DNA from: Rhabdophis nuchalis
Taxonomy: Eukaryota > Chordata > Lepidosauria > Squamata > Natricidae
Assembly: GCA_039707465.1 (NCBI GenBank)
Contig: CM077643.1
Location: forward strand, 43,472,105-43,536,104
Length of the DNA stretch: 64,000 nt
Direction of reading: 5' to 3'
Shown here in pieces: positions 1,107 to 55,300 of this stretch; positions within the stretch are counted from its first letter, which is position 1, and every line of letters begins with the position of its first letter. Made by a program: the position numbers and the translations under genes. Under the pieces are notes generated by a model that was not told the origin of the DNA, ran no database searches, and worked only from the letters and a program-made list of their open reading frames with translations.

Positions 1107-32052
<30,946 letters not shown>

Positions 32053-32600
32053 AGCCCCTCTTCTTCCTCCTCCCGCGCCTTGGGATGGGATGACGGGGGG
32101 GGGGGGAGGAGGGGAAGGGGCACGGAGCTGTTCCACTGCTCCCCGGCCCTGCCCGCAGGCCCGGCCAACCGCGGTCACATCCGCGTCTCCCAAGCCGCCG
32201 GCCCCGCCGCAAGCCGCAGCAGGCGCCGCCGCCGCTCCACTTTCCCAAGCCTGGGCCGCGGCTGCCTCGGTCTCACGCGCACTGCGCAAACGCAGAGGCC
32301 GGCCTAAAGCAACCGGGCAGGGTCCAGTTGCGCTCTCTAGCGGCCCCGGGAAGAGGACCGGAGGAAGAGGGAGTCGGCCTGTCGGGCAAGTGCCAATGGG
32401 AAAAGAAGGCGGCCCCTTCGGATACTCAGTGGAGGTGGGGCCGCCGGCTTGCCTCGCTTTTCCCTGAGGATGGCTTCTTGCTCGACAGTCGCTCAAGTGA
32501 AGTGCGGGCGGAGAGCGATTCTGGTGCCAGGAAGGCCGAGGCTAGGAAGAAATAGGAGGCTTCGCGGTTAGGCGGCCCGTCACGCTTTGATACCAGAAGC

Positions 32601-34150
32601 TGCCTAATCCTTCGCCGCCCTCTCCTTCGTTCGAGCTTCTTCTAAAATCACCCTCCAGAGATACTCCCCCAATCTCCTTTCCGTTAGTTATGTTGCCAGA
32701 GTATTGTGGAGAGTTGAAGTTCAACACATTTACGGTCTGCGTTGCCAATCCATCTCTATTTCAAGTCAAGGGGAGGAGGGGGACAGGAGCACTTCCAGAC
32801 TTACAAGATTCTGTTTAATGTAACCTTACAATGACATAGAATTAATTCATCAGGTTGTGTTTCCTGATTGCTCTACCCTACAAGGCTGAAAGTACTTCCC
32901 TTTCCCTATCTAATGTTTTACAGCCCCAAAACAAAGAGGGACTATTCTGAGTCTCTTGCGCCAATCACATTCCTACTGTTGGCTAAACTGCCTTTTAATC
33001 TCCTTGCCCTGGCTTCCAAATTCACTCCCACATATCAGAAAATGGCTAGAGGTTGAGCCAGGATGAGAGCATCATTCCCCATCTCACTCCTGTCAGACAT
33101 TCAAAATTGTACCCAATGCTGTTTCTGTGTTTAGGTCTGAATCCTGACTGGAAAGAATCCAGCTAATTGCTTCATCCAGAATCCACTAATGACCACCTTC
33201 CCCACAACAAAAAATTGCCCAGTATGGTGGGATCTAATGATTATTGAGGGGAGCGTGAACCAATCCCTCTAAGGGCAATCTCCTCTCTCAAGGATGCATT
33301 GAAAGATTTTAATCTTTCTACAATTTTGATAACTTAGACTCCAGGTGTAATTCTGATGGGCAGTGATACTAGGCTGGTGGAGTCCAGGAGGAGGGCATTC
33401 TCTGTTGTGACTATGGAACATCTCACCCACTGAGGTGAGATTGGCTCCCACCATTCTGTCCTTTCACAGGAGCCCGAGTTCTTAATGGGGGAACATTGCA
33501 TTGGAGACAGTTGTTGAATTAATAGGCAATTCCATCTCTCTCGCAGAACTGTGTCTCATAATTCCTAGTTAAGGAATGAAGTTGGTAAAGGCTGCCAGAA
33601 AATCTAGTGAAAGGAAATTATTAAACAATCAGTTTTGCACTCTAGTAGCCCATTGTTTTTCTAAAATGTTTCCTAACAGTAAGGCAACACTTAAGGGTTA
33701 AGGGAAATTATTATTACTTACCTTTTTTTAAAATCACTTTCTTTAGAAGGCAGAAGAGTAGTCAAGGCTTCAGTTGCTGCCCTTGAATGGCAAAAATGAA
33801 CTCTATTCCTAGTTCTAAAGGCTTGGACTTAGAATCTTGCTTAACTATAAGATAAATGATTGGAGCACAGTGTGTAGTGATGTCACAGACAATTTTCTGA
33901 TGCTTGTAGAACAAAGGCAGTTGGAGTATGAATAGAAAACCATCATTGGACAAATTACTTGCTAACTCCTTAATCTAGAACTAGTATTTTGACATAAAAG
34001 GCCATGATTCCAACTGGCTGTAAATAAGAAATAGCACTCAACAAAGATTCATCACCATCTAGAAAATGGTTCAACTTAAAGTCACAGTCCTAATGAAAAG
34101 AATTAATCGTTATGAGGTGGGATCAGAAAAGGTAGCACGTTTCTTTTACA
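32601..34150. other. spacer between the SOS2 CpG island and the 34.2-kb reading frame
   Basis: I see no conserved coding exon here. Bases 33350-33470 look like a worn LINE 3' coding fragment (compare the [15 protein letters not shown] stretch of L2). A first exon and intron of the 34.2-kb gene may be hidden here, but I cannot place a convincing donor. Confidence 0.4.
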
Positions 34151-34203
34151 TGTAGCTTTTTAAAAGAAAACAGCTTGGTTCAGAAGGGAGATTTGGCTTG
34201 CTG

Positions 34204-37200
34204 ATGCTGCAAAGGCTGTTACCTCAGGACCTCAGAATTAATTTAGCAATTTTGCTAAAAGAAAAGCTGAGTGATTTTGAAATTGTACTTGCCCAGATAA
34301 ATCCTGGGAATGAGGAAATACTCAATTTGGAGAATCTGGAACCTACTTTTAACACAAATGAGAATTATACTCAGATCAGTCACTATCAGAAAAGTGGATA
34401 TTCTGTGCAAGTAATGGAACAAGAACTTAGAAAGAAGGTTTCTGAAAAAAATGTGGTAGATGAGTCTCTGCAAACAGATAGCAAAGTGAGCATTTTTAGA
34501 CGAAAAGAAATAATGGATGAAAGTGAGCAGACAAATATGTCTGCAAGGACAAGTTGTGTAACACCTCTTAAGAAACAATTACAGTCCAACAGCCCTCAAC
34601 TCCAAGACCAAGAATCCTATTGTAATAATCAGCAGCCTGTTGCTTACCAGCCTTTACAAACCCCAAAGTCTTTTCAAGATGGCTTTGAACAGGAGGTTAT
34701 TTTTCCTGAAGAGACAGAAATAAAAAAACCTTGTGTGCAAGATGAAACCAAACAGCTAGAAAAGTTTGATAGTCAGCAAATAAAGACACAAGTTCCACAC
34801 CATGGTAGCCAAGGTATAAACAGACTGGAATCTCAGCACAGCTGCAAGCAAGCCATTTGTGCTCAAAATCTACCAAACAAAACATTTTCTCAGGGACAGC
34901 CTTTGAACAAAGAAAGGACTTGGATTTGTGAAAGAACAGGTCAGAGGATATCTAGCTATCAGCAAACCAGTATTGTTTGGGGCCCAGAAACACTTTCAGA
35001 ACTTTTACTTCCTTTTCATCAATCCACGTTAAGAAACAATTCAGAAAGAGAAACATTAAACACTGAAAAATTGCCAACATTTTCTGGGGCTTCTGAAATG
35101 AAACCTGTGTCACAAGAATCTCAACATAGTACACAACAGCTCCAGGGGCAAGCATTAGAACAAATTTCTCAAATGCACATGGTACAAGAATCTTGGCACT
35201 GTATTAAGCAGTCAGAGGGACAGGAATCAGGCAGTGATTGTAAGTCTGTAGGTGTACAAGGCTCTCAGGACAGTATTCAACAGCCAGAAGAGCAAGAATC
35301 AAGGCATGATACTCAATCTGTTGCAGCACAGGATTCTTGGCATGGTATTATTCAACAGCCAGAGTGGCAAGAATCAAGACGAGGTAGTCGATCTGTTGCA
35401 GTACAAGAATCTTGCCACAGTATTCAACAGCCAGAGGAGCAAGAATCCAGGCGAGATAGTCGATCTGTTGCAGTACAAGAATCTTGGCATGGTATTCAAC
35501 AGCCAGAGGGGCAAGAATCAAGACAAGGTAGTCAATCTGTTGCAGTAGAAGAATGTCAGTGCAGTATTCAAAAGCGACAGGGGCAAGAATCAAAGCGAGC
35601 TAGTCAAGAACCTGTAGTACCAGAATCCCAATATAATATTCAAGAGCCAAAAATATTTGGAGTACAGCAGGAGACCCAGTTAAGAGACCAACAAGTAGAA
35701 ACAGAAAAAACAAAATCAGAGGGGAAAAAAACAAAGCGACGTAAAAAAATACGGAAAATTAAAATTGACCAAGCTCAGCAGACAGATAGTACTCAGAGTC
35801 TGAAAAGAGAGTTGCTTGAAAAAAGTTTACAGACTGATACGGTTAACATTGCAAAAATTAGAACACAATTAGGAATGCAAGAATCTCGCCATGGTAGTCA
35901 TCAGTATGACTTGCCAAAAACAGGTAAGCCTATTATTTCAGACCTCTGCATTGATAGTCTGCCACAAAAACAAACAAAAGATTTTCACCAAGGAGTCAAG
36001 CCAATTGACATTCCAGAATTTCGCTCTTGCAGTCTACCAGCCAATTTACCAGATACTCTCCATGATAGCGAGCAAAGTGAAGTGCAAGAATTTCGACACA
36101 GTAGTCTCCCTCTTGAAGATCGGCAAGTTTATCACAACAGACCTATAGCTGGGTTAAAAGAATTTGAACGTGATAGTCATCAATTAAAAAAAAAAGATAA
36201 TCAAAATGATATGTTATTTGGACTAAAGCAAAAATCGCAGCATGGTAGCCTAGGGGCAGAAAACAAAATTGATGATGCAAAGGAGCCCTATGGGACAATT
36301 GCTTCTGATAATACAACAATGCCACTGAAACAAAAGATGTCATTTGGTCAACAGACATACAGCATCATTTCTTTGGAGGAAACTACTTGGTTAAACCGAA
36401 GATCTGGCAAATTAATGCAAAACCACAGTCAACAGACTAATGATAGTTGGCTTCAGAATTATAGAGAGAAAAAACAGAAACTTACCAGTAAAGAAGCACT
36501 ATCAAAGAGTAATGAGTCTCAGGTTCAAAAGTCTCAAAGAATTAGCTCAGAGTCAGGGACCAATGAACAGTATACTGCCCTTGAGACTAGAAACAGAGAA
36601 CAGGCTGCTGTGCTTGAGTCCCATGAGGACAGTAAGCACTCCCCAAGTTTAGAATCCCGAAGAAGCAGCAAACAGCCTATATCCCTTGAAATTGAGAACG
36701 CAAGTGAACTGCCTGCTATATCAGACTCTTGGAAAGATAAACTATCTTTTGTTCCAGAATCTCAAACAAATGGTGAAAGGTTTGCCATACTTTATTCCCA
36801 GAAGGATGGTGGCCAGGTCACCATTCCAGAATATCAAAAGGATAGCAACAAATCCATGATCTTAGAGTTTGGGAAAAGTACAGAGGTGACTGCTACCACA
36901 GAATTCCAGAAAGGCAATGAAGACCCCACTTTATCTGAATCCCCAGAGGACACTAATTACCCAACTCCTCCTAACTCCCAAAGGAGCAGCAAAGAATTTG
37001 TTTTCCCTGTATCTGAAAGATGTAGTGAAAAATATACAGTATCTGAATCTTTGAGGACCAGTGAAGAAACTGAGTCCCAGATGACCAATGAGCCACCGAA
37101 CATCATGCAGCTTCACAGGACTAACGAACAGCCTCCTGCAAGTGAATCAAAAACTAGTGAATTATTTCATGAGAAATGGGAGGCCAATGAACCATTTTTG

Positions 37201-39318
37201 CTTAAATCCCAGGGAGGCATGGAATTTCCCAACATACCCCATTCCCGCAGAGTTAGTGCACCTCCCAGCATGTACCAGTCCCAGAACTCCAGGGAACCAC
37301 CCAACTTGCCCCAGTCCAGGAGAGCTAGTGAAACACTCATATCCCAGAAGATTCTTGAACCACATCTTGTATGTGGGTTCCAGAAGGCAGATCGTCCCTC
37401 AGTTTTTGAGTCACAGAGGGAAAGTATGCAACCCATTTCTTCAGAGTCTGAAATGGGCAGTGAATATCCCCCTTTGCTTGACTTTCAGAAAGGCAGTGAA
37501 CAGCCTGCTATTCCAGAATTATCAGAATGCAATGAACTTGAACCCCCAAAGGGCAATGAACAACTTACTGTATCTGAATCCCAAAAGGATAGCAAACAGC
37601 CTGCCATCCCTGAACCCCAAAGGAGCACTGAACTACTGATTGAATGCAGATGCAGGAGGGACACTGTGAAGCCAGATACATCAGAATCTCAAACGTGTAG
37701 TGAATCACTCACCATGCCCAAATCTCAGAGAGATAGTGAGCAAGCCATCATGCCTGAGTCTTGGAGTGTAAACCAGCAACCCACTACATTACTGCCTCAA
37801 TGGGAAAGTAAACAACCTGTTGTGGTAGAGGCAGAACATCAGCTGGTTGCAGATAAAATGAACAAAGTGGATGAGGGTAATACTCTTGAAAGTGACATAA
37901 ATGATTCAAAACAAAAGCCTTCGTGTGCTTCAAAAGCTCAGCAAACTTACAGCATTATTTCAGTTGGAATGAACACCTGGAAAAACAGAAAAACTGGTAA
38001 AATAATGACATGTAGTAGTCAACAAACTGAAAGAAGTTGGCTTCAGGAGCATAGAGCAAGAAAAGCAAATATCACACCTAAGGGAAGTTTTGCTAGGAAT
38101 TCCACACCTGAAGAAAAAAAGACTGAACTTAATAAAATACATCGTGTTGAGGATGACAGAAAGGAAATTATAGCACCGCAAGATACTTGTAAGAAGGAGT
38201 CTCAGCCTGAGAATCAGATGGTGGCAGCAGCCCCGTTGATTAAAGAGAAAGAACACCTACAGGAGGATGCTTTAATAGATGCAGTTCCAAAGCCTGAGTT
38301 ATTAGCTTCACAGCTATCTGGCAAAGAGATGGTGATATCCAAAGTGTTAACAGTATCTCAACAGGCCAGCAAAGAAGCAGAAATGGCAGCAACTCAACAA
38401 GCTAGCCAGAAGACAAAAACATCTCAACAGGCAGAAGATATATCATCCCAGCAGACCAGTCAACAGCAAGAAATAATAGCCTCTGAAGGGATGCCTCTAC
38501 AAATAAGCAGCAAATTGGATTTGGAACAGGAACTCCGTCAAGGAAGTAAGCAGTCTGTGAAACATGAATTTAACTATGATGACATCCTTTGGAGTACACC
38601 CTCAAATGATGCACAGCAGCCTTATGAGTCTGCAAGCAGGAGTACCCTTGACAGTTCATCATCATATGTAGAGGGAGAAGATGAAGCTCTGCAGACATAT
38701 AGCAGAATTTCTCTAGAAAAGGGTGTCTGGCTAAACAGAAAAACTGGAAAAGTACTGATAAATCATAGCCAGCAGACAAGTATGAGCTTGCTTAGTAAAA
38801 CACTCTTGGAGAACAATGGAAATTCTGCAGGTTGTCCCAAACCACCCATATCTGATGTGAAATTGAATGAAGCAAAATTTGATCAGCAAACCTGTAGTGG
38901 CAATAAATCATCTGAAAGTGCTATATCGAATCTCAGCATTCAACAATCTTGGGATGAGATGCAGAGTATTGATGAAGTTGAGAAAGTGCTAGTTTCTCGT
39001 ATAAGTAGGGATATTTTGAGTGCACAATCCTTAGCTTATGTAGAGATGGAATATGAAACTTCGCTCACTTATGATGCAATATCCATGCCAAAAGGAAGCT
39101 GGATAAATCTTAAAACTGGCAAAGTGCTAGTATCTCGTTATCAACAAACAGATGAATCGTCCTTTCAGAAAACTAAGGAAGACATTCAACCATTCAACCG
39201 GCATCCTAGCTATACACCTGATCTGAGTTATTATGATATGAGCGATAGACAGGTAAATGAAGGTTCACAACAAACCTGTAGTGATGCAGATATGGAATCT
39301 GAAATGCCTGATGGATAA
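34204..39318 (+). CDS. unrecognised giant single-exon reading frame, repeat-built Gln/Ser/Glu-rich protein (about 1,704 aa)
   Basis: I do not recognise this gene. The frame runs 5.1 kb without a stop in DNA whose other frames close often, ending TAA at 39316. The first ATG in frame is 34204; the frame is open back to 34156, just after an in-frame TAG at 34153-34155, and AG dinucleotides at 34172-34173 and 34182-34183 could be splice acceptors, so the true start may be in an upstream exon. Residue numbers below count 34198 as codon 1. Visible parts: a hydrophobic, amphipathic N terminus (LRINLAILLKEKLSDFEIVL, about 12-31), a 24-residue repeat (329-484), a strongly basic cluster at 510-522 (KKTKRRKKIRKIK, nuclear-signal-like), a 12-residue repeat (808-1211), four full copies of a 30-residue module (718, 1248, 1498, 1622) with a partial one at 241-258, and many Gln-Thr motifs. 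There is no signal peptide, membrane segment or enzyme motif. It is probably disordered and scaffold-like (inference). The polyadenylation signal is at 39423. The protein shows no reverse transcriptase, integrase or Gag-like motif. Confidence 0.75.
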   Translation: MLQRLLPQDLRINLAILLKEKLSDFEIVLAQINPGNEEILNLENLEPTFNTNENYTQISHYQKSGYSVQVMEQELRKKVSEKNVVDESLQTDSKVSIFRRKEIMDESEQTNMSARTSCVTPLKKQLQSNSPQLQDQESYCNNQQPVAYQPLQTPKSFQDGFEQEVIFPEETEIKKPCVQDETKQLEKFDSQQIKTQVPHHGSQGINRLESQHSCKQAICAQNLPNKTFSQGQPLNKERTWICERTGQRISSYQQTSIVWGPETLSELLLPFHQSTLRNNSERETLNTEKLPTFSGASEMKPVSQESQHSTQQLQGQALEQISQMHMVQESWHCIKQSEGQESGSDCKSVGVQGSQDSIQQPEEQESRHDTQSVAAQDSWHGIIQQPEWQESRRGSRSVAVQESCHSIQQPEEQESRRDSRSVAVQESWHGIQQPEGQESRQGSQSVAVEECQCSIQKRQGQESKRASQEPVVPESQYNIQEPKIFGVQQETQLRDQQVETEKTKSEGKKTKRRKKIRKIKIDQAQQTDSTQSLKRELLEKSLQTDTVNIAKIRTQLGMQESRHGSHQYDLPKTGKPIISDLCIDSLPQKQTKDFHQGVKPIDIPEFRSCSLPANLPDTLHDSEQSEVQEFRHSSLPLEDRQVYHNRPIAGLKEFERDSHQLKKKDNQNDMLFGLKQKSQHGSLGAENKIDDAKEPYGTIASDNTTMPLKQKMSFGQQTYSIISLEETTWLNRRSGKLMQNHSQQTNDSWLQNYREKKQKLTSKEALSKSNESQVQKSQRISSESGTNEQYTALETRNREQAAVLESHEDSKHSPSLESRRSSKQPISLEIENASELPAISDSWKDKLSFVPESQTNGERFAILYSQKDGGQVTIPEYQKDSNKSMILEFGKSTEVTATTEFQKGNEDPTLSESPEDTNYPTPPNSQRSSKEFVFPVSERCSEKYTVSESLRTSEETESQMTNEPPNIMQLHRTNEQPPASESKTSELFHEKWEANEPFLLKSQGGMEFPNIPHSRRVSAPPSMYQSQNSREPPNLPQSRRASETLISQKILEPHLVCGFQKADRPSVFESQRESMQPISSESEMGSEYPPLLDFQKGSEQPAIPELSECNELEPPKGNEQLTVSESQKDSKQPAIPEPQRSTELLIECRCRRDTVKPDTSESQTCSESLTMPKSQRDSEQAIMPESWSVNQQPTTLLPQWESKQPVVVEAEHQLVADKMNKVDEGNTLESDINDSKQKPSCASKAQQTYSIISVGMNTWKNRKTGKIMTCSSQQTERSWLQEHRARKANITPKGSFARNSTPEEKKTELNKIHRVEDDRKEIIAPQDTCKKESQPENQMVAAAPLIKEKEHLQEDALIDAVPKPELLASQLSGKEMVISKVLTVSQQASKEAEMAATQQASQKTKTSQQAEDISSQQTSQQQEIIASEGMPLQISSKLDLEQELRQGSKQSVKHEFNYDDILWSTPSNDAQQPYESASRSTLDSSSSYVEGEDEALQTYSRISLEKGVWLNRKTGKVLINHSQQTSMSLLSKTLLENNGNSAGCPKPPISDVKLNEAKFDQQTCSGNKSSESAISNLSIQQSWDEMQSIDEVEKVLVSRISRDILSAQSLAYVEMEYETSLTYDAISMPKGSWINLKTGKVLVSRYQQTDESSFQKTKEDIQPFNRHPSYTPDLSYYDMSDRQVNEGSQQTCSDADMESEMPDG
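34918..34971 (+). repeat. partial copy of the 30-residue Trp/Gly/QQT module
   Basis: Residues 241-258 of the large frame read TWICERTGQRISSYQQTS. This matches the second half of the full module: Trp, then (R/K)TGx, then QQT about seven residues later. The N-terminal TYSxIS part is absent. Confidence 0.55.
35182..35649 (+). repeat. 24-residue (72-nt) coding tandem repeat, about 6.5 units
   Basis: Within the large frame, residues 329-484 repeat a unit like VQESWHGIQQPEGQESRQGS followed by xSVA. Units begin near residues 329, 353, 377 and onward; the third has one extra Ile. Central units are nearly identical, the first and last more diverged, as expected for recent unequal exchange in the middle of the array. 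Confidence 0.85.
36349..36438 (+). repeat. 30-residue module, copy A
   Basis: Residues 718-747 of the large frame begin QQTYSIISLEETTWLNRRSG and end in HSQQT. The module core is TYSxIS, five variable residues, WLNRxxGK, then a terminal QQT. Confidence 0.8.
36619..37830 (+). repeat. 12-residue (36-nt) coding tandem repeat, about 34 units
   Basis: Within the large frame, residues 808-1211 repeat the pattern S-Q-(K/R)-x-S-(E/K)-Q-P-x-(I/L)-x-E, for example SQKDSKQPAIPE and SQRDSEQAIMPE. Most units are exactly 12 residues; a few are 8-11 or longer. The units are much diverged in sequence but keep their register, which suggests an old array under constraint on the protein. Confidence 0.85.
37939..38028 (+). 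repeat. 30-residue module, copy B
   Basis: Residues 1248-1277 begin QQTYSIISVGMNTWKNRKTG and end SSQQT. The position of every conserved residue matches copy A without gaps. Both A and B are followed by a SW-Leu-Gln stretch (SWLQN, SWLQE). Confidence 0.8.
38689..38778 (+). repeat. 30-residue module, copy C
   Basis: Residues 1498-1527 begin LQTYSRISLEKGVWLNRKTG and end HSQQT, colinear with copies A and B. Confidence 0.8.
39061..39150 (+). repeat. 30-residue module, copy D
   Basis: Residues 1622-1651 begin SLTYDAISMPKGSWINLKTG and end RYQQT. This is the most diverged full copy, 55 residues before the C terminus. Confidence 0.78.
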
Positions 39319-39422: not shown

Positions 39423-39428
39423 AATAAA
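39423..39428 (+). promoter_or_regulatory. candidate polyadenylation signal of the large frame
   Basis: A consensus AATAAA lies about 105 bases after the TAA stop. In such AT-rich DNA this motif is common, so support is modest. Confidence 0.4.
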
Positions 39429-43180: not shown

Positions 43181-43376
43181 TCACAATTCGAATCTCTGCT
43201 CTACCTCCTTGGCTATCATTTTTGCAATGGCAAGGGAGGAGGTAGCGGCAGGTGAAGGGGCATTCCTGACATGGAGGATTCGAGCAGCAATGTCTCCAGT
43301 TCCACTATCAAACACAAAATCATCAATCAAGTTCCCACCACTGTCCAAGGCTTGAGCTCTGACCCCAGCAGGTCCT
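43181..43376 (-). CDS. L2HGDH: L2HGDH exon 10 (stop)
   Basis: It encodes [20 protein letters not shown] through EVEQRFEL and a TGA stop at 43183-43181. Human ends with the same QRFEL. Acceptor tttttgcag. Confidence 0.96.
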
Positions 43377-46300
43377 CTGCAAAAAGAAAAACATTAAAAC
43401 ATTCAATATTTCATTTGATATCTGCCTCCTCACCAAAGTGACTTAATATGAGGTATCTAAGACAATTACTGCACTATTGTGGTTGATTACAGAATAGAAT
43501 AAAACTGAGTTATAGACCAATAAAAATATATTCTGTAAAACAAATGAAACAAAAGTATCCCGACATCAATAACTCTGGCAATCATTTGTGGGCAAAACGT
43601 ACATATAAAGTAGCACAACTCTGCTACTTTTAGAGAGATAAATTTATCCTGATTGCTTAACAGACAATATGGTTAATTATATACACTTGATTTTAGCTAA
43701 CAGCTGAGAAGCTTATCAAGTTTGCTTCTTTAAATTCAATTGCACAAGGGTTCAGGGTTTGCCCTTGGGATTTAAGTTGTAAACAAAGGGCTGTACTCCA
43801 AAAAAAAGATGGTGTCAGATTAAAAAAAAACCAATATGGGACCAGGACAAAAACTGATTTTGATAACTTTGCATTATATTAAAAACACAAAGACCTTCTT
43901 GAGGGAGATGGGTGGTCTAGAAACATGTTGGAGAAGATTCTTGTGAGTTTCTTGGACTACAAGGCGATCAAACTGGTCAGTCCTAGAGGAGATCAACCCT
44001 GACTGCTCATTAGAAGGCCAGATCCTGAAGAGGAAACTCAAACACTTTGGCCACCTAATGAGAAGGAAGGACTCACTGGAGAAGAGCCTAATGCTAGGAA
44101 AGACTGAAGGCAAAAAGAGAAGGGGATAACAGAGAATGAGGTGGCTGGATGGAGTCATTGAAGCAGGAGGTGTGAGCTTAAATGGACTTGAGGATGGTAG
44201 AGAACAGGAAGGCCTGGAGGAACATTGTCCATGGGGTTGCGATGGGTCGGACACGACTTTGCAACTAACAACAACAAAAATTAAATCTACAAATTTAATT
44301 GGTTATTACTAATAAGTCAGGTTAGTTCAAAGATTCAGTTCAAAGGATCAGTTTAATTAAAATAATAAAATATAAATGTGTGAGGTTGGACTTTGTTCTC
44401 TTGTGATTGCCTAGAATCTAAATTGATTCTACATTTGAGTGCAAAAGACAAGAGATTGGGGAGAGGGGGAAATAAGTGGGAGGGAGGGAAATGAGTAATC
44501 CCTGTGGTCATATGGGCAGGTGGTTGCCAAGCACCCAAACTTTGATCACATGGCTGCAGGTCAGTGCAACAGCCGTTAACTTCAAAGAATAAGAACCAGT
44601 CATTCTGTGCCACCATAACTTCAAACAGTTGCTGAACAAATGGTTATAATTCATGAAGTACATCTATTTGGTATAAGGTTCCTGCCCACGCAGGGGGTTG
44701 GACTAGAAGACCTACAAGGTCCCTTCCAACTCTGCTATTGTATTGTATTTGACTAAGAAACGGAGGGGAAATGTGTATCATAATTTTGATCCTCATGGAA
44801 GTAGCAGAAAAGAGGAGAGACAGCTATGTTGGACTAGTTTTCATCAAATGCGTTTTTCGGGTGTGAACTCTTTATTAAGGAGCTGCTTCTTCAAAATTCT
44901 TAAACATATTCAGCCATGGGGGGGGGGGGGACCCACTCTTGACATCTCAGTAATTTTAAATTTGTTTTACCTCTGAATATCATTGATGGTAACTTCAGGG
45001 ATGATTCTTTGCAGCTGCTTCAATTGGGCATTTAGAAAACATGCTCTGTACATTTCACCCATTCCATATGAAAAATTCTTCAACGCTAGTTTCCATAAGC
45101 CACTGGGAGAGAAAAAAGCAGTTTATTGGGAATTGGCTGGCTAAGAAAGTTAAATTCTCTCATCATCCATAATTCTATAAACTCTGAGACCTTGGAAAAC
45201 ATCAATATAGAAATATAGTAAATAAATGTGTATGTATCTCTGTGTGTTCATAAATCAACTAAAAGTACAAGCTAATAATTGCATCACAATTACATTGAAG
45301 GAATTAAATCAGTACTAACCAAGCCATTTTAGTGCTGTAGCTAAGAAATACTGCACTGGGATTAATAGCTGTCATTTTGATGTAAGCCTTTGATTATTCT
45401 GCTGGTTTTCACTTTACATATCTGATTAAGTGGACTTATCTAAAATGTTTATGTCACAATACATTTTTACATTCTTGGGATGCTGTAAAATTGGTTGTTT
45501 TTCTAATTGCTTTGAATAAAAATATGATTTTAGTTCATTTTTTTAATCTAGTAAAACATGTTTTTGTTAAATAAATAAACAATCTTGTCTTTTTTTTTGT
45601 TTTTCGCCTGCCACTTAGGTTTCTTCAGATGTTAGAAATGATTCTATTGAACTATCGTTTTTTATAAGATCAATATTTGTATTTGCTTTTTCTCCCAACA
45701 TTCCTAAACACAATACTACTTACAACCTCAACTGAACCACACTCTCTGTCCTCTCCTACAGCTCCCCCTGCAAGCAATTGAAGGCTTCTTGCAATGCTCA
45801 CAATTAATACTCTAGTAACAGAAAAACGAGGGAGGGCATATTATCTGGAAAAGATTACCTGTAAGCAACTGCATCTATAAAATCTTGAATGCTGAAATCA
45901 TAAAATTTATAGCCCTCTCGTTTAAATGCAAGGACTGCATTCGGTCCAAGCCAGACACTACCATCCATCCGTGGGGTAAAATGAATGCCCAGAAAGGGAA
46001 AACGGGGATCAGGTACCTGTCATACCAAAACACACATCCTAAATCAAAATTCATTTGAGGTAGGAAAGAAGTGAATGTCTGTATCGCCCTACATGCAAAT
46101 TATAAAACAGTTAAACAAAACAGTTCCCATTGAATTGTAGAGAGATAGGGAGAATAAATGGAGTCAATTTTCCAAAGAGAGAGTGGCTCTTTTTAATTGG
46201 AGATGTTTAAGCAGAAGTGAGATGGCCACCTACCAGAGATGCTTTAATTTGGATACTTGCATGAATCAAGGCCTAAATGCCCCATTTCAATTACACATAA

Positions 46301-49300
46301 CAAAATTTTTAAAAAAGTTTTTTTAAAAAAGAAAGGCAGAGTAAAGGAAAATATGTGGCAATGATCTGGAAAGGAAATTGAGATACTTTCTATTAAGGCT
46401 ATTAAAGTTTAAGGTATAAGGTTTCTGCCTAGGCAGGAAGTTGGACTAGAAGACCTCCAAGGTCCCTTCCAACTCTGCTATTGTATAATTGTTTAAAGAA
46501 CTTTTTGCAACACCAATAGTGCCCAACCCCCTTCCCCCAGGTTTTACTTCCTTCCAACCAATAAGTGAAAGTACTGAGAAATGATATACCGGATAAATGT
46601 TTCCTCTAACTAAATAGCACTTCTCTGGCTTCAGCACCAAATAATCTCCACGGAAAGGCACAATGCGGGGCTCTGGGTCACAACCAGAGATCTGGGAGAG
46701 TCTGTCCGAGTAAAGTCCTGCGCAGGACACAAGATGTCGGCATCGGACCTCCTTCCCCTGTGACAAAAGTAGCACAAATTTACCTCAGCTATAATATACC
46801 TTACACAATCTCAAAAGTAAATAATTTCCAAAGATATTTCCCGTATGTTTCACTTCCTCCTATGCTGCTCCTCATGTCTGAACTGAACTGTCCTAAGATC
46901 AGTAGGACAGGAAGGGATTACTTTTTTCTCTGAAATAGAAGTTCAAATCAAAAATATGTTTTTGGGGAAGAGAGATAACTTCTGGAGAAAGCTAGTCTGG
47001 CCAAACAGCTACCTTAGCCAATGGAAAAGGCCAGATGTCCAACAACTGCACATGACAGGGTTACTTGCATTTGAAGTCAGACCTTCTCAGGGAATGAGAA
47101 ACTTTAAGCCAGGGGTGTCAAACTCGACTTCATTGAGGGCCACATCAGGTTGTGTTTGACCTCGGGGGGGGGGGGGGAGGGCTGGGATGAGCGTGGAGAG
47201 GGTGGGTATGGCCGGCTTAACATCACTCATGTCAGGGGCACCTGGGGTGGCTCAAGCACTCTGCCAGCAAAAACGGGCTCCCAAGCTCAGTTTTCAGCTG
47301 CGATGGCCTCCTGCAGTCCTCTGCCAGCAAAAACTCAGCTGGCAGAGGCACTGCAGGTCAGTCTTTCACTGTTTCTGGGATGGCCCCGTGGACCAGATCT
47401 AAGCACCCCGTGGGCCAGATCTAGCCCTGGAGGCCTTGAGTTTGACACCCCTGCTTTAAGCAATTAGTAAACAGGCACAGCTAGAACTTTGTAAAAACTA
47501 CTAGAACCGTGCCTTTGTAATACTTTGTAATATGGTTATTATCTTTCTCAAATATTTTCAGATATTAAGAATTATGTTTGCTTTTCTATGTAGAGCGCTA
47601 AGGAAAGCCTCAACTAATTTTTAGTATATATTTATGCTTTAAGTAACCTGAAGATTACAGTCTTCTTTTCTATCAACCTCGAATACTGTTTTGTATATTA
47701 ATTCAGTTCTCAGTTTTCCTTAGAGATGAATTCAGAAAATGGATTGCATATGAAAGCACAGATGGCTGAAAAGTAACATACATAGGTATAACCTTCATTT
47801 ATATGTTTAAAGACTTTGGAATGTATTTCTTTTATTATAAAAAGCAGGTGGTGATGGTGCTTTTTAATAAATTATGTATATGCATCACCCTGAATATGCC
47901 ATTTTTATCTTAATATTCTACATCTTCCTATTTCATCGCTGCAAAAACTCTGTAATATACAAACCAGCATTCTAAGCTGAGTGTAATATAAAAGTAACTA
48001 AAGTATTAACCTACTAAATTATCAATTAAGTTAAAAAATTATGCTTAGTACCGTAAGTAAAAATATTGGAAGGTCAAAAATATGTATTTTAAGAAATTGA
48101 ATTTAATGATAATCTTACCTTTGAATTTCTAACAACAATTGGATATTTCATCCCTACAAATAATATGAAAAGAATTTAAATTGGTTATGAAGCAATTGTT
48201 TTATCCCTTGTGCAAAACTAAAACCCAAATGGTAGTTTCTGAAGAGAAAGTAGGCTCATCTGCAGCCATTTTCTCTTTCTTGTAGAAGCATCTTTATTAA
48301 GATGCTAGTATAGGGGGAAAGAACCCTGACTTTATTGTAATATATATTCTTAAGCATGTTTTATGTCTATTAAAAAATTGAGTTTCTTTTCTCGGCCTTA
48401 GTTTAGTTTGAGTTCCATTCAATCCTTCTCATAAAACAAAGTGTATTTCAAAGTACACTAAACCATTTTAAACAGCATGCAATGTGTTGAAAAAAAGATC
48501 AGACTACAGAACTCCTAATAATCCAAAAATAGGAACTCTAGCAACATAAAACATCAATTCTCCTTTGATTATGGACACAATCCATGTAGTTTGCTTGGCA
48601 ACAATACCTTTTGAATGGCTTTTTGCTGTCCCCTTGTTCTATCTCCCTTTCTGCCTTTCTGTTTACTCAAATAATATCTATATTACTAGGTATCCTTTGG
48701 CAAAAGTGGTCAGAAGATTTTTTTTCTGAATTTTGGAAATGATGAAACAACTTTTTCTTGCTAAATTCTCTTTTAGTAAAAGGATTTAAAGTATAGATGT
48801 CAAACCAAGTAGCAGACCAATTGTAATGGCTTCTAATACACATTTGTTATTCTTTATTAAATTGCAAGGAAAAAGTTGTTTAATTGTCCTTTTTCCTAGG
48901 TATAACCCATCTGTCTTTATGATATGAATGAGTTTAAAGTAAAATTTAGTATCTATCAAATTTATAGCAATTTTTGAAGAAGTTCTGAAAAGATATCCTA
49001 TAACATAAACATCTGAACCATACCACTTATTCAAAGCAACCTAAGTACTGAAGGCAATTTCAACCTGCACAATCTTTAAATGTATAGAAAATACCGTCTA
49101 TGTACATAGGCTATGCTAAGCCAGGATTTTTTTAACCTTGGTTTGTTGCACCAGGTATATTAGACTGGTTCATACACACTTAAGGTCGAATGAAATAAAC
49201 TTTGTTGTTGCTTAAATTTATGTCTGCCTAAAGGCCACTCTGGATTTTGCATGGAACATCAAAAGATGTATTCTAAAAATGGAAGAGACCAACTTTTGCT

Positions 49301-52300
49301 TTTTGAAAAGTTTTAGGAGATGAAAGGGCATTGCATCTTAGGGTTGCAAGGGGAATGCTGGTGGACACACTCTTGGGAACATCATCTTAATGCATGTTGA
49401 GTTCAAGGTCTGCATATTACAGTGAATCCTAAGAGGACAATTCCAAAGAACATTGGGGAAGAGTATAACTGTAGAGGTGTCAGAAACGAAAGATTTACTC
49501 TAAATTACCTTCTTTACTTCCTTCAGAACTCTCCTTTGCCATATCCATCTCTTCCACCTCAAACTCTGTCAAGACAGTACCTCCAGCTGTCTGAAAATCT
49601 TCAGCATAGGCTAGGGCCACCTGCCTGTAGTTCACAATGCCAGTGTATGGGGAATCCAGAGCCATCAACCCCTGAAAAGGTGGATGCAGGGACAACACAT
49701 CTGTTCACAGGGTCAATATTGAAAGAACAAAGAAGACACAAAGGGGCCATTTGAATCAATGCAACTTTCAGCAAGGCAGCCTACATGCTTATTAGGTCTA
49801 CATGCTTACTCAGATAGTGCTGCTTATCGGCAAGGAATGACAGAAGGACAATTTAAAGCACACGAAAGTGGCGCTAGACTAATATTTTCCAAAATGGGTT
49901 GTTCAAAAAAACTTTAGCAACAGGACTATCTGACATTCCCAGTGCAATTTTTGACACCGTTCCTACCTTTGAAACCAACAATTGGTAAAAAGATTTGGTG
50001 AGGTAAAATACTGAAGAGTGACATGCACGGATTGAAACTTATTTCTGGAAGTCAAGCATTGATTAGTAGGTATTTGAAGTCTGAGAGATCAAACTGGAGG
50101 ATTTTGCCTGGAAAAGGGAGAAGATACAGACAAAGAAGAAAAGAAGAGGGGCTCTTGAATCTTGAGTAACTGACTGGGTATGATGGTTGGTAGACTTTGA
50201 AGAGTGGGCCTGCTTTTCTGTCTGAGGTAAAGGTTAAGGACATGCAGGGCCTTGATTAAAACTGCCATGAGCTACTGACTCCTGAACAGCCGTAGATCCA
50301 ACTGGGAGGAGAATTTGGCCTCAGCTAGAGCTCTTCCAGAGAAACAACACCTGGAAATATATAACCGAAATAAGTGAGCATGTTAGTTTTGCATGGGAAA
50401 CTCCAAGCAACATGAACAGTGAAGAACACTTTGTGATGATCTGTAAGGTATGAAGGTTTGGCTTTCAAACAGAAAACTTAAACCATGCTTGCTGGAAGTG
50501 GAAGCTTATGTCATTAGAAGAGAACATGAAGGAATAAAGAATTTATATCATCAGACATGAGGGAAGGTAAAAATTTGCTTACTATGATGGGTAAAGCAAC
50601 TCAGTCGGGGCGGAGAAATGATATGAATGCCAAAGAACACAAGAAGGAACAAAAGCTTGTGACCCAGAGAAGCAAGAGGATCAGAAGTTAAGTGCCACTA
50701 GTAGCTCAGCAACCTGCTCTAGAAGGCAGTGCATGGATTCTACCTTACCAACCTCAGTTTCATGGAACAGGATGGAACATACTCAGCCCTGATAAGTCAA
50801 AGAATGCAGGATCCACTTTGAAGAAGAAGAGGTGCATTCTGGTAATGTGTAATTCCCAAATGTGAAAAACTTACTGTATTTTTTGGACTAGAAGATTTTG
50901 AAGAGGTATTTTTTTTTTATTAAAAAAGGGGGTTGCACTCTGCAACCCTCTGCATGCCTAGTTTTTTGGAACAACAGGGCATGCAGAGTTTGGGAGGCCT
51001 GTAAAGTGATCCTGGGGGTTTGGGGGGGCAAATATGAGCAAAAAACAGGCCCATTCTTTTTGCAAAAAACAGGGCATGCATAGGCTTTGGGAGGCTTGTA
51101 GAGTGCTCCTCTACAAGTGGCCCGTTTTTTACTCATTTTTGCCCTCCCCAGCCCCCAGGAGAACTTTGCAGGCCTCCCAAACCCTCTGCATGTCCATTTT
51201 TATGAAGGGGCGGGATTTCAGAGGGCCAAAAAAATGCTGTATTCAGTGTATAAGATGCACCCAGATTTTCACCCTCTTTTGGGGGGAGAAAAGGTGTGTC
51301 TTATACTCTGAAAAATACGGTAGGTTGAAACTTGCAGATTGAATATGATGTCACAGAATATGTATTATCTTCCAGGTCTGTTCAATAGGCTGCCAAAACC
51401 TTTTCCCCTGAATAGACTTCAAGCCTATAAATAACAGTTGTACTATCTATTCAGGGGAACATGAACAAAAAATGCCAGAAAAGACCTCAAAAGCTTTCTC
51501 CAGAGTCAAAGAGGAAAATGACCTAGGAAAATAAAAAAGTGGGAAATGTAAATAGTGTACTTGTCAACTCTTTCACAAAGGGAAAACAAGATCCTGGAAA
51601 TCAGAAAACCTTTATTTAATTTTCTATATCAGCTTTAATTTAATGTACCACTATTGTTAAACTGCACGGAGATATTGATTTCAGACTTTGCCGGGTACCT
51701 TCCCAAAATATTAGATACTGCACAGCAAGACAGCAGCTTACCCGACAATAGGGTTCCTTGGCTTGTATTTCTTTGGGAGAGATTAGTTTCAGTCCCCGGA
51801 CATTATTCTGTGTCCCCCTTTCATAAAGTGCCTTGAGCCTCGGAATTTCTTCATGTTCAACTGCAACAATCAGCTGCCAAAGAAATAAGAAACTAGAGCA
51901 ACCGCAGAACCAAAAAATACCATGGACGAACAACAGGAGACAACCACACTGTGAAGTGTGAAGAAACAGAATTAATATTGGATTAAATTAGACTTCAATT
52001 AAAATTGCAATATAAATTAATTGTGCTTCATATCTTTATTTAGTTGGAGGGATCTTTCCTTGCTGATATTCTTTCTTGATAAAAACAAAACTACAGACTC
52101 TCGATTTCTTTGAATCAAAGAACAATAGAAGAAGTCAAAGTCTCTTGTTCTTTAAAGTAATTGTCAGTGAGAGCTGAACTAGCTAGAAGTATTATATATC
52201 TGCTCCTTCTCTGGATAATATAAGTCAGAGGTCTTCAAACTTGGCAACTTTAAGACTTGTGGACTTCTTTTTTTTTTTTTAAAGATAGTTTTTATTAAGC

Positions 52301-55300
52301 ATTTTTACCTTTAAAAAACAGGAAAGCATACACACACACACACACACACACACACAAAGAAAAAAACAAGACAAATATAAAAATGTAAAATAGTTTTACA
52401 GACATGTGGACTTCAACTCCCAGAATTCTCCAGCCAGCTCCGCTGTCTTAAAGTTGCCAAGTTTGGGGACCCCTGATATACGTATTAGGCTGTTTTTTCT
52501 CTTATCAGGAAAGAAAAAGAATTGCATTATACCAGGTGTTTTTTCAGCATCCACTTCAAACACTTAAGAGAAAACAGAATAGTTTTATCTTATCTTGTTC
52601 ATCATTAAGCCTCCGCTAAATACCTTTGTTGACTCAGCAGGTGGCAGCCACTAGCTTGTCTAGGCTTCAAAGCTAAGCAAGGTGAGGCTTGGTTAGTATT
52701 TGGATCAGAGCTCACCATGAAGTTTGAAGAATCTGCCAGTTGCGTGGCCAAGTTGAAACAGATCTAGTTCTAGTCCTGCCTTAGGCACGAAGCCAGCTGG
52801 ATCACCTTGGGCCCATCATTCCCTCAGCTCTGGGAAGAAGGCAGTGGTAAACCATTTATGAAAAAGAATCATGCCAAGAAAACTGCAAGGACTTGCCAAG
52901 TGTCAAAAACTAACTAAAAGGTACAAAAAAAAGAGACATTCAGTGTAGACTTTATTTTGGGGACAGTTGGAAGAATTTAGCTACTGTATAAGCCTAGTTA
53001 TATGAACTAGTGCAACCAACCTGGTATGTTATGGCTGATTTTTTTTTTAAAGCCTTAGTGTCTCATATTTGGCAGGCAGACATTTCTAGTTGGGCAATGA
53101 GCTGAAGGTGCAATCTTGAATGCCTTCCTGTGAATAAAATTATCTGTACCATCTTTCTGCCAATTGAAACAGCACCCAAATTGCTCCCCATTAGATTTAA
53201 TTGTAAACTGCTGCAGCTTTAGGGAGATGTCACATTAGTCACCCTTCACTGACATCTAAATCAACTGACGTACGCTTTGCTTTTTCAAAGGACACAATTA
53301 TTCTAAGATAGATAAATAGATATGCTGATTTCTGTTCGTACACTGTAATTGCAAATATAAAAATAACAATAAAGCAATGGAACAAGGGAAATGGAGTTAA
53401 TGCAATCATACTCAAGCAGTATACACACGCAAGCATATATATTGGTTTCTGATGTTACTGTATAACAATGATGGAAAAGGCTAATCAATAACATTTCATT
53501 CTGTGTAACTCTTAAGACTGCAGATTATATCATGATTGGAAAGTTGGTTCAGCGATTATAAAGCAGTAATGAAAAAAATCACAATAAGAAAATCCAACAA
53601 TCCCAGATTAGTGTGTACCTATCGTATGATTCTTGGGCCAATTCTACTGTTTGAATAATGACAATAATCATAAATGAAGTGCATTAGAGTTATAGTAGGA
53701 TTAAGTTTGCTTCTCTTTAAATTATTTAGAACACCCTAATATAGCCACCCCAAGAAAATTAAGTAACTTAATCAAGTATATGTGGAGCTGTAGAAGATTA
53801 GCAGCAAAAATTTCAGCACTTACCCTACCTTGCCACATTGTTTATATGGGATTTGTTTTTGGTCACAGTATTCATAGCAGAGAACAGCGCCTTCTACACA
53901 CAACTTGGCTTTTAGGGATCCAGGTGTATAATAGATTCCACTGTGAATAACACCACTGTTATGCCCACTTTGATGAAGAGCTAAACAGAAAGGTACATCT
54001 ATCATTGGATTGATCTTCTAATACATAGAAATATTTTGTTAGTCAAAATATTATTCAATTATTTTACATAATTTCAGTGTTAGTTCGGGAAAAGATAGCA
54101 AGGTAAAATAGAAATAAGCATAAAAAGAGCCACATAGCATGCATAATATGAAAATATAAACATTTATCTTAAGCAGTAAGATTTAAGAACTCACTAAAAT
54201 ATCATGTTCCTGATTTTTTTTTGAGACAGCTATGTGCCCTATGCCAAACCAAGATATACAGGAAACTATATAGATACGATAGGCTTCTATTTGTCAGAAA
54301 ACTATAGATATCATACTATTCTATGTAGGCAACAAAATCCATATCCTAGAAATCATCAATTTTCCATTGAATGGCCACAAAAAATTACAATATAAGTTAC
54401 TAGGAATTTTAATGTTCTCTTATAACAAATGATATGTAAAATTAGCCCATCAAAAAGATTTTTAATGGATTGTAACAACCTGAACCAGAAGTAGTCCACA
54501 ATTGAGGTCCGCAACCTCAATTGAGACCAGCAACTTGGTTATTACGAATACGAATATTTATTTGTATAACCGCGTCCTCTCCCCTAGGGGACTCGGAGCG
54601 GTGTACAGGGAGAAAATTAAAACAGCATAAAAATATACATAAATACACTAAAAACAAATTAAATTTAACTATCCCTGCACTAAAATTCCCATTTAAAATT
54701 AACAATCCCTAATCCCTGGGTAGAGACTAACCTAGGCCGGCCAAGCAGAAAAAATGAGTTTTTAATTTCTGACGGAAGGAGCGGAGGTCCGTAGTTGTTC
54801 TAATGTCGGGGGGAAGGTCGTTCCAGAGGGCTGGGCCCGCCACAGAGAAGGCCCTTCCCCTGGGCGTCGCCCGCTGACAAAGTCTAGTGGACGGCACCCG
54901 GAGAAGTCCCTCTCTGTGGGAGCGAATCGGCCGGGAGGATGTATGAGGCAGAATCCGATCCCGCAGATAGCTAGGTCCCGAGCCATGGAGCGCTTTAAAG
55001 ATGAGAACTAACACCTTGAAGCGCACCCGAAAGACGACAGGTAGCCAGTGCAGCTCGCGCAAGAGCGGTGTTACATGGGTATACCTTGAGGTTCCCATTA
55101 TTGCTCGCGCGGCTGCATTCTGGACCAGCTGAAGTCTTCGGGTGCACCTCAAGGGGAGCCCCATGTAGAGAGAGTTACAATAGTCCAGTCGGGATGTCAC
55201 GAGAGCATGAGTGACTGTGCGAAGGGCGTCCCGATCCAATAGGGGGCGCAACTGGCGAACCAGGCGAACCTGGTAAAACGCCCTCTTGGCCACGGCTGTC

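What the first reader, a model, noticed from the sequence alone, without database searches (positions are those of the whole stretch)
34204..39318. A 1.7-thousand-codon unrecognised gene between SOS2 and L2HGDH
A single plus-strand frame stays open for 5.1 kb, while the complementary and shifted frames close often. Human SOS2 and L2HGDH are neighbours with no gene I know of between them. The product has no transposon, viral or enzyme motif, and its coding repeats keep their protein register even where the DNA has diverged. That combination suggests a real, fast-evolving protein-coding gene, lineage-specific or lost in mammals.
Basis: partly seen in the sequence, partly recalled or inferred. 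Interest (0 to 1): 0.9.

Follow-up and report, generated by a model that had tools for sequence, protein, structure and literature searches.

The report
Fast-evolving snake gene beside SOS2
The long open frame is a real protein-coding gene that lizards and other snakes also carry and that has relatives in turtles and birds; it belongs to a little-studied family of floppy, repeat-rich proteins that may be scaffolds in the sperm tail, although nobody has yet tested what it does.

Summary
The + frame is open from 34156 to the stop at 39316-39318 (1,720 codons; 1,704 aa from the ATG at 34204), where about 89 stops are expected. It lies head-to-head with SOS2 and tail-to-tail with L2HGDH.

It is a real, fast-evolving gene with one long coding exon, not a transposon. 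Predicted orthologues exist in Naja, Crotalus, Candoia (partial), Varanus and Pogona. Three paralogous open frames (1,666, 830 and 307 codons) were found on the same chromosome of the window's genome. Turtle and bird relatives exist, so the family predates squamates. It is unnamed rather than unrecognised: automated models call members "futsch-like", "filaggrin-like", "MED12-like" or "fibrous sheath CABYR-binding protein". No Pfam family matches the window protein.

The proteins look mostly disordered, with about five copies of a 45-residue "QQT" module and spacers enriched in PKA-type sites. My best guess at function is an FSCB-like, PKA-phosphorylated scaffold of the sperm tail. That is inferred: no expression data, no cross-species dN/dS and no mammalian sequence could be tested.

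The parts
34204..39318 (+). gene A: single long coding exon, 1,704 aa from this ATG, stop codon included
34156..34203 (+). in-frame extension after a splice-acceptor-like site (tttcttttacatgtag, AG at 34154-34155); reads LFKRKQLGSEGRFGLL, close to the Naja model
   Evidence: splice inferred, no transcript
32396..32434 (+). possible first coding exon in the CpG island (MGKEGGPFGYSVE), followed by GTGGGG; joins in frame to 34156 as in the Naja model
   Evidence: inferred
34267..34269 (+). CTG at the position of the ATG start used by lizard orthologues (MDxxE...); Naja also has L here
   Evidence: alignment; sequence
34909..35004 (+). QQT module 1 (degenerate, 20.2 bits)
35182..35616 (+). tandem array of six 24-aa units (one with an extra codon) that hold R/K-rich PKA-type sites
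36349..36480 (+). QQT module 2 (74.5 bits)
37936..38064 (+). QQT module 3 (66.6 bits)
38686..38814 (+). QQT module 4 (65.3 bits)
39067..39189 (+). QQT module 5 (60.2 bits)
39423..39428 (+). AATAAA about 105 bases after the stop, possible poly(A) signal
31250..32750 (.). CpG island between SOS2 (minus) and gene A (plus); possible shared promoter
   Evidence: role inferred
16498..17244 (-). SOS2 exon region with SOS1/NGEF-like PH domain (neighbour)
43184..56412 (-). L2HGDH coding pieces (neighbour), last coding exon near 43184-43393

Best explanation
Gene A is an intact vertebrate protein-coding gene with one long coding exon. It belongs to a sauropsid family duplicated along one chromosome: A beside SOS2, C, B near MIS18BP1, and a short distant member E. 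Its product is a mostly disordered scaffold. Conserved 45-residue modules (QQTYSIISxExGxWxNRxTGKxMxxxSQQTSxxW) act as repeated binding elements, and fast-changing S/Q/E-rich spacers carry PKA-type sites. The likeliest role is an FSCB-like, PKA-phosphorylated scaffold of the sperm tail. Shown: open frame, conservation as protein, family, modules, motif enrichment. Inferred: scaffold action, PKA control, germ-line use.
For: Open frame. Identity over aligned residues: Naja 82%, Crotalus 79%, Candoia 66%, Varanus 41%, Pogona 40%, Podarcis 37%. Two long and one short paralogous open frames in the same genome; a turtle query finds A, B and C independently. Clades A (98/95), B (100/99), D (100/100) and turtles (100/100) are supported, C with geckos nearly so (94/92). 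In 50-aa windows against two lizards, the windows holding most of a module score 0.49-0.70, one other stretch (501-550, a QTD motif pair) 0.54, and the rest 0.08-0.45. Module pN/pS 0.24-0.46. R[RK]x[ST] sites exceed shuffles in 14 of 17 proteins tested, out of 32 held (at most 2 of 500 shuffles reach the count): A 6 against 1.6, B 40 against 3.6, Varanus 40 against 2.7, Pogona 46 against 3.0. AlphaFold: 0 of 214 and 53 of 800 residues at pLDDT 70 or more. Mouse Fscb has a single coding exon, is testis-enriched and is described as a PKA target (PMC7401351, passages and one section). Two automated names say FSCB (Zootoca, Limosa).
Against: No transcript evidence. No mammalian FSCB among the named hits of any search. 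Gene A does not sit where mammalian FSCB sits (by recall). PKA-site enrichment is weak in 3 of 17 proteins tested (Naja A 4 against 1.7; Grus 3 against 1.0; P0026 1 against 0.2). The tandem 24-aa array shows little constraint. The Podarcis lilfordi model of A runs into a shifted frame inside its repeats (P0006). The names FSCB, futsch, filaggrin and MED12 are automated and contradict one another. Mouse Fscb knock-outs are fertile.
Confidence: 0.5

Rival explanations
1. Real gene of the same family, but working elsewhere: a cytoskeletal or epithelial (filaggrin- or futsch-like) repeat protein, not a sperm protein.
For: Automated names 'futsch-like' and 'filaggrin-like'; S/Q/E-rich repeats.
Against: No Pfam domain of those families in the window protein; such names commonly come from low-complexity similarity (general knowledge). 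No direct evidence about tissue either way.
Confidence: 0.3
2. An orthologue of mammalian FSCB in the strict sense, displaced within the same chromosome segment.
For: Single coding exon in both. In mink, RPS29, FSCB and LRFN5 are listed for markers on one chromosome; in this snake the family lies on one chromosome with FANCM, MIS18BP1 and SOS2. Two automated FSCB names.
Against: No named mammalian protein reached E 1 with the module query. B lies about 70 kb from MIS18BP1 and A beside SOS2; by recall human FSCB lies elsewhere on the same arm, near C14orf28. Several paralogues leave one-to-one orthology unclear.
Confidence: 0.15
3. A relic: an open frame that is no longer expressed.
For: No RNA data; the start codon of the lizard gene is a CTG in this snake; one lizard model is frame-shifted (P0006).
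Against: About 1,700 codons open here and long predicted proteins in other snakes, with module-centred conservation.
Confidence: 0.03
4. Part of a transposable or viral element.
For: Long intronless frame.
Against: One full-length copy found in 1.9 Gb, otherwise diverged paralogues (lower bounds); no Pfam domain of any kind; orthologues in other snakes and lizards.
Confidence: 0.01

Closest known systems
Automated squamate models: LOC120301816 (Crotalus tigris), E2320_021902 (Naja naja), 'futsch-like' (Candoia, Pogona)
   Same: Orthologues of gene A: 79-82% identity over aligned residues in Crotalus and Naja, 66% in Candoia, about 40% in lizards
   Different: Predictions with no characterised function; no held paper names any of five identifiers of the family
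FSCB, fibrous sheath CABYR-binding protein of mammals
   Same: Single coding exon; described as a PKA target; two sauropsid family members carry this automated name
   Different: Homology to mammalian FSCB not shown here; position on the chromosome differs by recall; several paralogues in squamates
Turtle LOC112545400 (Pelodiscus) and G0U57_017945 (Chelydra); bird models (Grus, Limosa)
   Same: Same modules, five clear ones in each of the two turtle proteins
   Different: Shorter (535-815 aa); the two named birds keep two to three modules
WW domain
   Same: Small beta-strand module with a conserved W, N and TG turn (resemblance noted by me)
   Different: No Pfam match for 11 of 11 module sequences; one WW chain in Foldseek only at E 8.0

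Membership tests
Sauropsid QQT-module family (unnamed, delimited here) | Several copies of the 45-residue module | tested here: met
   5 copies, 20-75 bits; modules of the window's close relatives were in the training set
Sauropsid QQT-module family (unnamed, delimited here) | Falls in a supported clade of the family tree | tested here: met
   clade A 98/95, sister to Naja 97/87; 26 of 32 proteins used
Sauropsid QQT-module family (unnamed, delimited here) | Main coding part in one long exon | tested here: met
   A, B, C each one open frame
FSCB (mammalian) | Sequence homology to mammalian FSCB | tested here: inconclusive
   no named mammal among 25 hits at E<=1, but only 7,994 candidates were scored; no mammalian sequence could be compared directly
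FSCB (mammalian) | Single coding exon | tested here: met
   PMC7401351 passage on mouse Fscb; window frame, with a possible short extra exon
FSCB (mammalian) | PKA-type phosphorylation sites | tested here: met
   motif only: 6 against 1.6 in shuffles, 2 of 500 reach it
FSCB (mammalian) | Same chromosomal neighbours | tested here: inconclusive
   family shares a chromosome with FANCM, MIS18BP1, SOS2; mink FSCB listed with LRFN5; LRFN5 not located here
FSCB (mammalian) | Testis expression and CABYR binding | not testable with these tools
   no RNA or protein data
Transposable element | Many near-identical copies or TE domains | tested here: not met
   one full copy plus diverged paralogues found (lower bound); no Pfam domain
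WW domain | Match to the Pfam WW profile | tested here: not met
   0 of 11 modules match any Pfam family at E<=10 (HMMER's filters drop most very weak matches)

The most novel reading that the evidence does not exclude
Sauropsids have a previously uncatalogued multigene family, spread along one chromosome by duplication, whose members combine a new small beta-module (no Pfam match) with tunable arrays of PKA sites. It would be a fast-evolving scaffold system of the sperm tail that is independent of, or split long ago from, mammalian FSCB.
Probability: 0.3. Interest if true: 0.65.

Novelty: new member of a known kind. Interest (0 to 1): 0.45.

Why it matters
A large gene between two well-known genes has so far only contradictory automated names. 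Treating A to E with the turtle and bird relatives as one family would correct many annotations. It would also give a test case for how sperm (or other) scaffolds evolve by repeat turnover while short modules stay fixed. The short list of paralogues makes expression and localisation easy to test.

Full report
WHAT IS THERE. The reported frame is real. In the window's + strand the frame is open from 34156 to 39315 with the stop at 39316-39318. The region's triplet make-up predicts about 89 stops; the frame has only its terminator, and the five other frames have 62 to 189. Its neighbours are SOS2 on the minus strand (SOS1/NGEF-like PH domain at 16498-17244) and L2HGDH on the minus strand. Six L2HGDH pieces were recognised by eye; four of them match the DAO domain at E<=0.01, two above the curated cut-off, and two match nothing. 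The gene therefore lies head-to-head with SOS2, from whose CpG island (about 31250-32750) it may be transcribed, and tail-to-tail with L2HGDH.

GENE ANATOMY. The Naja model (P0001) begins with a short exon. A matching exon can be read in the window at 32396-32434, and it joins in frame to 34156, which follows an acceptor-like tttcttttacatgtag. The donor there reads GTGGGG, not an ideal site, and no transcript was seen, so this exon is only possible. In lizards the protein begins at a methionine (MDxxE...) that aligns with a CTG at 34267 in the window and with L in Naja; these two snakes thus seem to have moved the start upstream. The Crotalus and Candoia models do not cover this point. An AATAAA lies at 39423.

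ORTHOLOGUES AND PARALOGUES. Three protein searches returned 11, 16 and 25 proteins, 29 different ones in all: 19 with a named organism (squamates, two turtles, two birds; no mammal) and 10 from unnamed assemblies. Each search scored only about 8,000 candidates. Identity of gene A over aligned residues is 82% with Naja, 79% with Crotalus, 66% with Candoia, 41% with Varanus, 40% with Pogona and 37% with Podarcis lilfordi. In the window's own genome (1.92 Gb, 348 contigs) gene A is at C1:43506308-43511419. Paralogue C (830 aa, open) is at 42651389-42653881 and paralogue B (1,666 codons open from a GTG; its first ATG comes slightly later) at 41019636-41024636. A short member E (open frame of 307 codons with two modules, 28 and 30 bits) is at about 63.817 Mb. 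A turtle protein used as query finds A, B and C again but not E. No orthologue of the fourth lizard clade, D, was found with a D query, whose best match was C. The SANTA domain of MIS18BP1 lies at 40.952 Mb and FANCM at 40.898 Mb, about 70 and 120 kb from B; other genes in between were not excluded.

TREE. A tree of the two last modules and the stretch between them used 26 of 32 proteins; I left out P0006 and P0019, whose ends are out of frame or cut, and four birds or bird-like proteins (P0025, P0026, P0027, P0029). It gives clades D (100/100), turtles (100/100), B (100/99) and A (98/95), with C and geckos just under the tool's threshold (94/92), and gene A sister to Naja (97/87). The root is at the midpoint, for drawing only. 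Clades A, B and C each hold a snake and Pogona, so at least three copies predate their split; D (Phrynocephalus and two unnamed) probably makes four. Turtle and bird members show that the family is older than squamates.

PROTEIN. It is rich in S, Q and E (34%). AlphaFold gives mean pLDDT 44.7 for its C-terminal 214 residues (12 sequences). For a whole turtle relative (P0021, 21 sequences) mean pLDDT is 43.7. There the last module reaches 86-90 over residues 701-720 as a three-stranded sheet, followed by a helix (728-741) at only 48-66; the module before it reaches 66-76, and the other three are short strand pairs at low confidence. Pfam does not match the module (0 of 11), solved structures give one chance hit (E 0.63), and fold search found nothing convincing. 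Conservation between the window and two lizards peaks at the modules and at a QTD motif pair near residues 501-550. Between modules 2, 3 and 4 of the window pN/pS is 0.30, 0.24 and 0.46 with pS 0.62-0.83. The six units of the 24-codon array give 0.72 overall, with pairs from 0.31 to 2.85 and 5 of 15 above 1, so that array is under weak or no constraint. In paralogue B, 13 repeats give 0.25, but those were picked by a protein pattern. PKA-type sites R[RK]x[ST] exceed shuffles clearly in 14 of the 17 proteins tested (of 32 held): strongly in B (40 against 3.6), Varanus A (40 against 2.7) and Pogona A (46 against 3.0), modestly in the window (6 against 1.6), and not clearly in Naja A, Grus and P0026.

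HOW IT MAY WORK. The shape of the evidence (fixed short modules, a shifting disordered spacer with kinase sites, one main coding exon, fast evolution) fits a scaffold whose modules bind partners and whose spacers are phosphorylated. The closest named protein is FSCB. Mouse Fscb has a single coding exon, is testis-enriched and is described as a PKA target, and its knock-out is fertile (PMC7401351, passages and one section read). PMC3398308 (passages) says that FSCB co-immunoprecipitated with CABYR from sperm lysates. That two sauropsid members are called FSCB is an automated label. Mammalian FSCB was not among the hits and could not be compared directly. A mink association study lists RPS29, FSCB and LRFN5 for markers on one chromosome (PMC11431770, passages); from recall, human FSCB lies near C14orf28 and KLHL28, not at SOS2. 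So I hold 'works like FSCB' as the best guess and 'is FSCB' as undecided.

VERDICT. It is new to Pfam but not to automated annotation, and it belongs to a sauropsid family older than squamates. Its function remains open.

Noticed in passing
1954-4062 (+) and 54730-55995 (-): Two reverse-transcriptase frames of a non-LTR-type retrotransposon (RVT_1, E 9.6e-36 and 2.9e-31); the first is open for 702 codons.
   Followed up: partly
9370-10146 (-): Frame with a weak GIY-YIG match (E 0.0021, below cut-off), perhaps a Penelope-like element (recalled).
   Followed up: partly
7677-9070 (-): Open frames made of a simple repeat (YLPTYLP...), probably not genes.
   Followed up: no
L040:4167-5087 (+), C1:63817166-63818086: Short further member of the family (307-codon open frame, two modules) about 20 Mb from gene A.
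   Followed up: partly
L010:2637-7637 (-): Paralogue B carries a long array of similar 24-aa units rich in PKA-type sites (40 R[RK]x[ST] in the protein), about 70 kb from MIS18BP1.
   Followed up: partly
P0006 (Podarcis lilfordi): The model's tail reads the repeats in another frame, so this lizard copy of A is broken, mis-assembled or mis-annotated.
   Followed up: no
34267-34269: This snake and Naja appear to have lost the start codon that lizards use for gene A and to read an upstream extension.
   Followed up: partly
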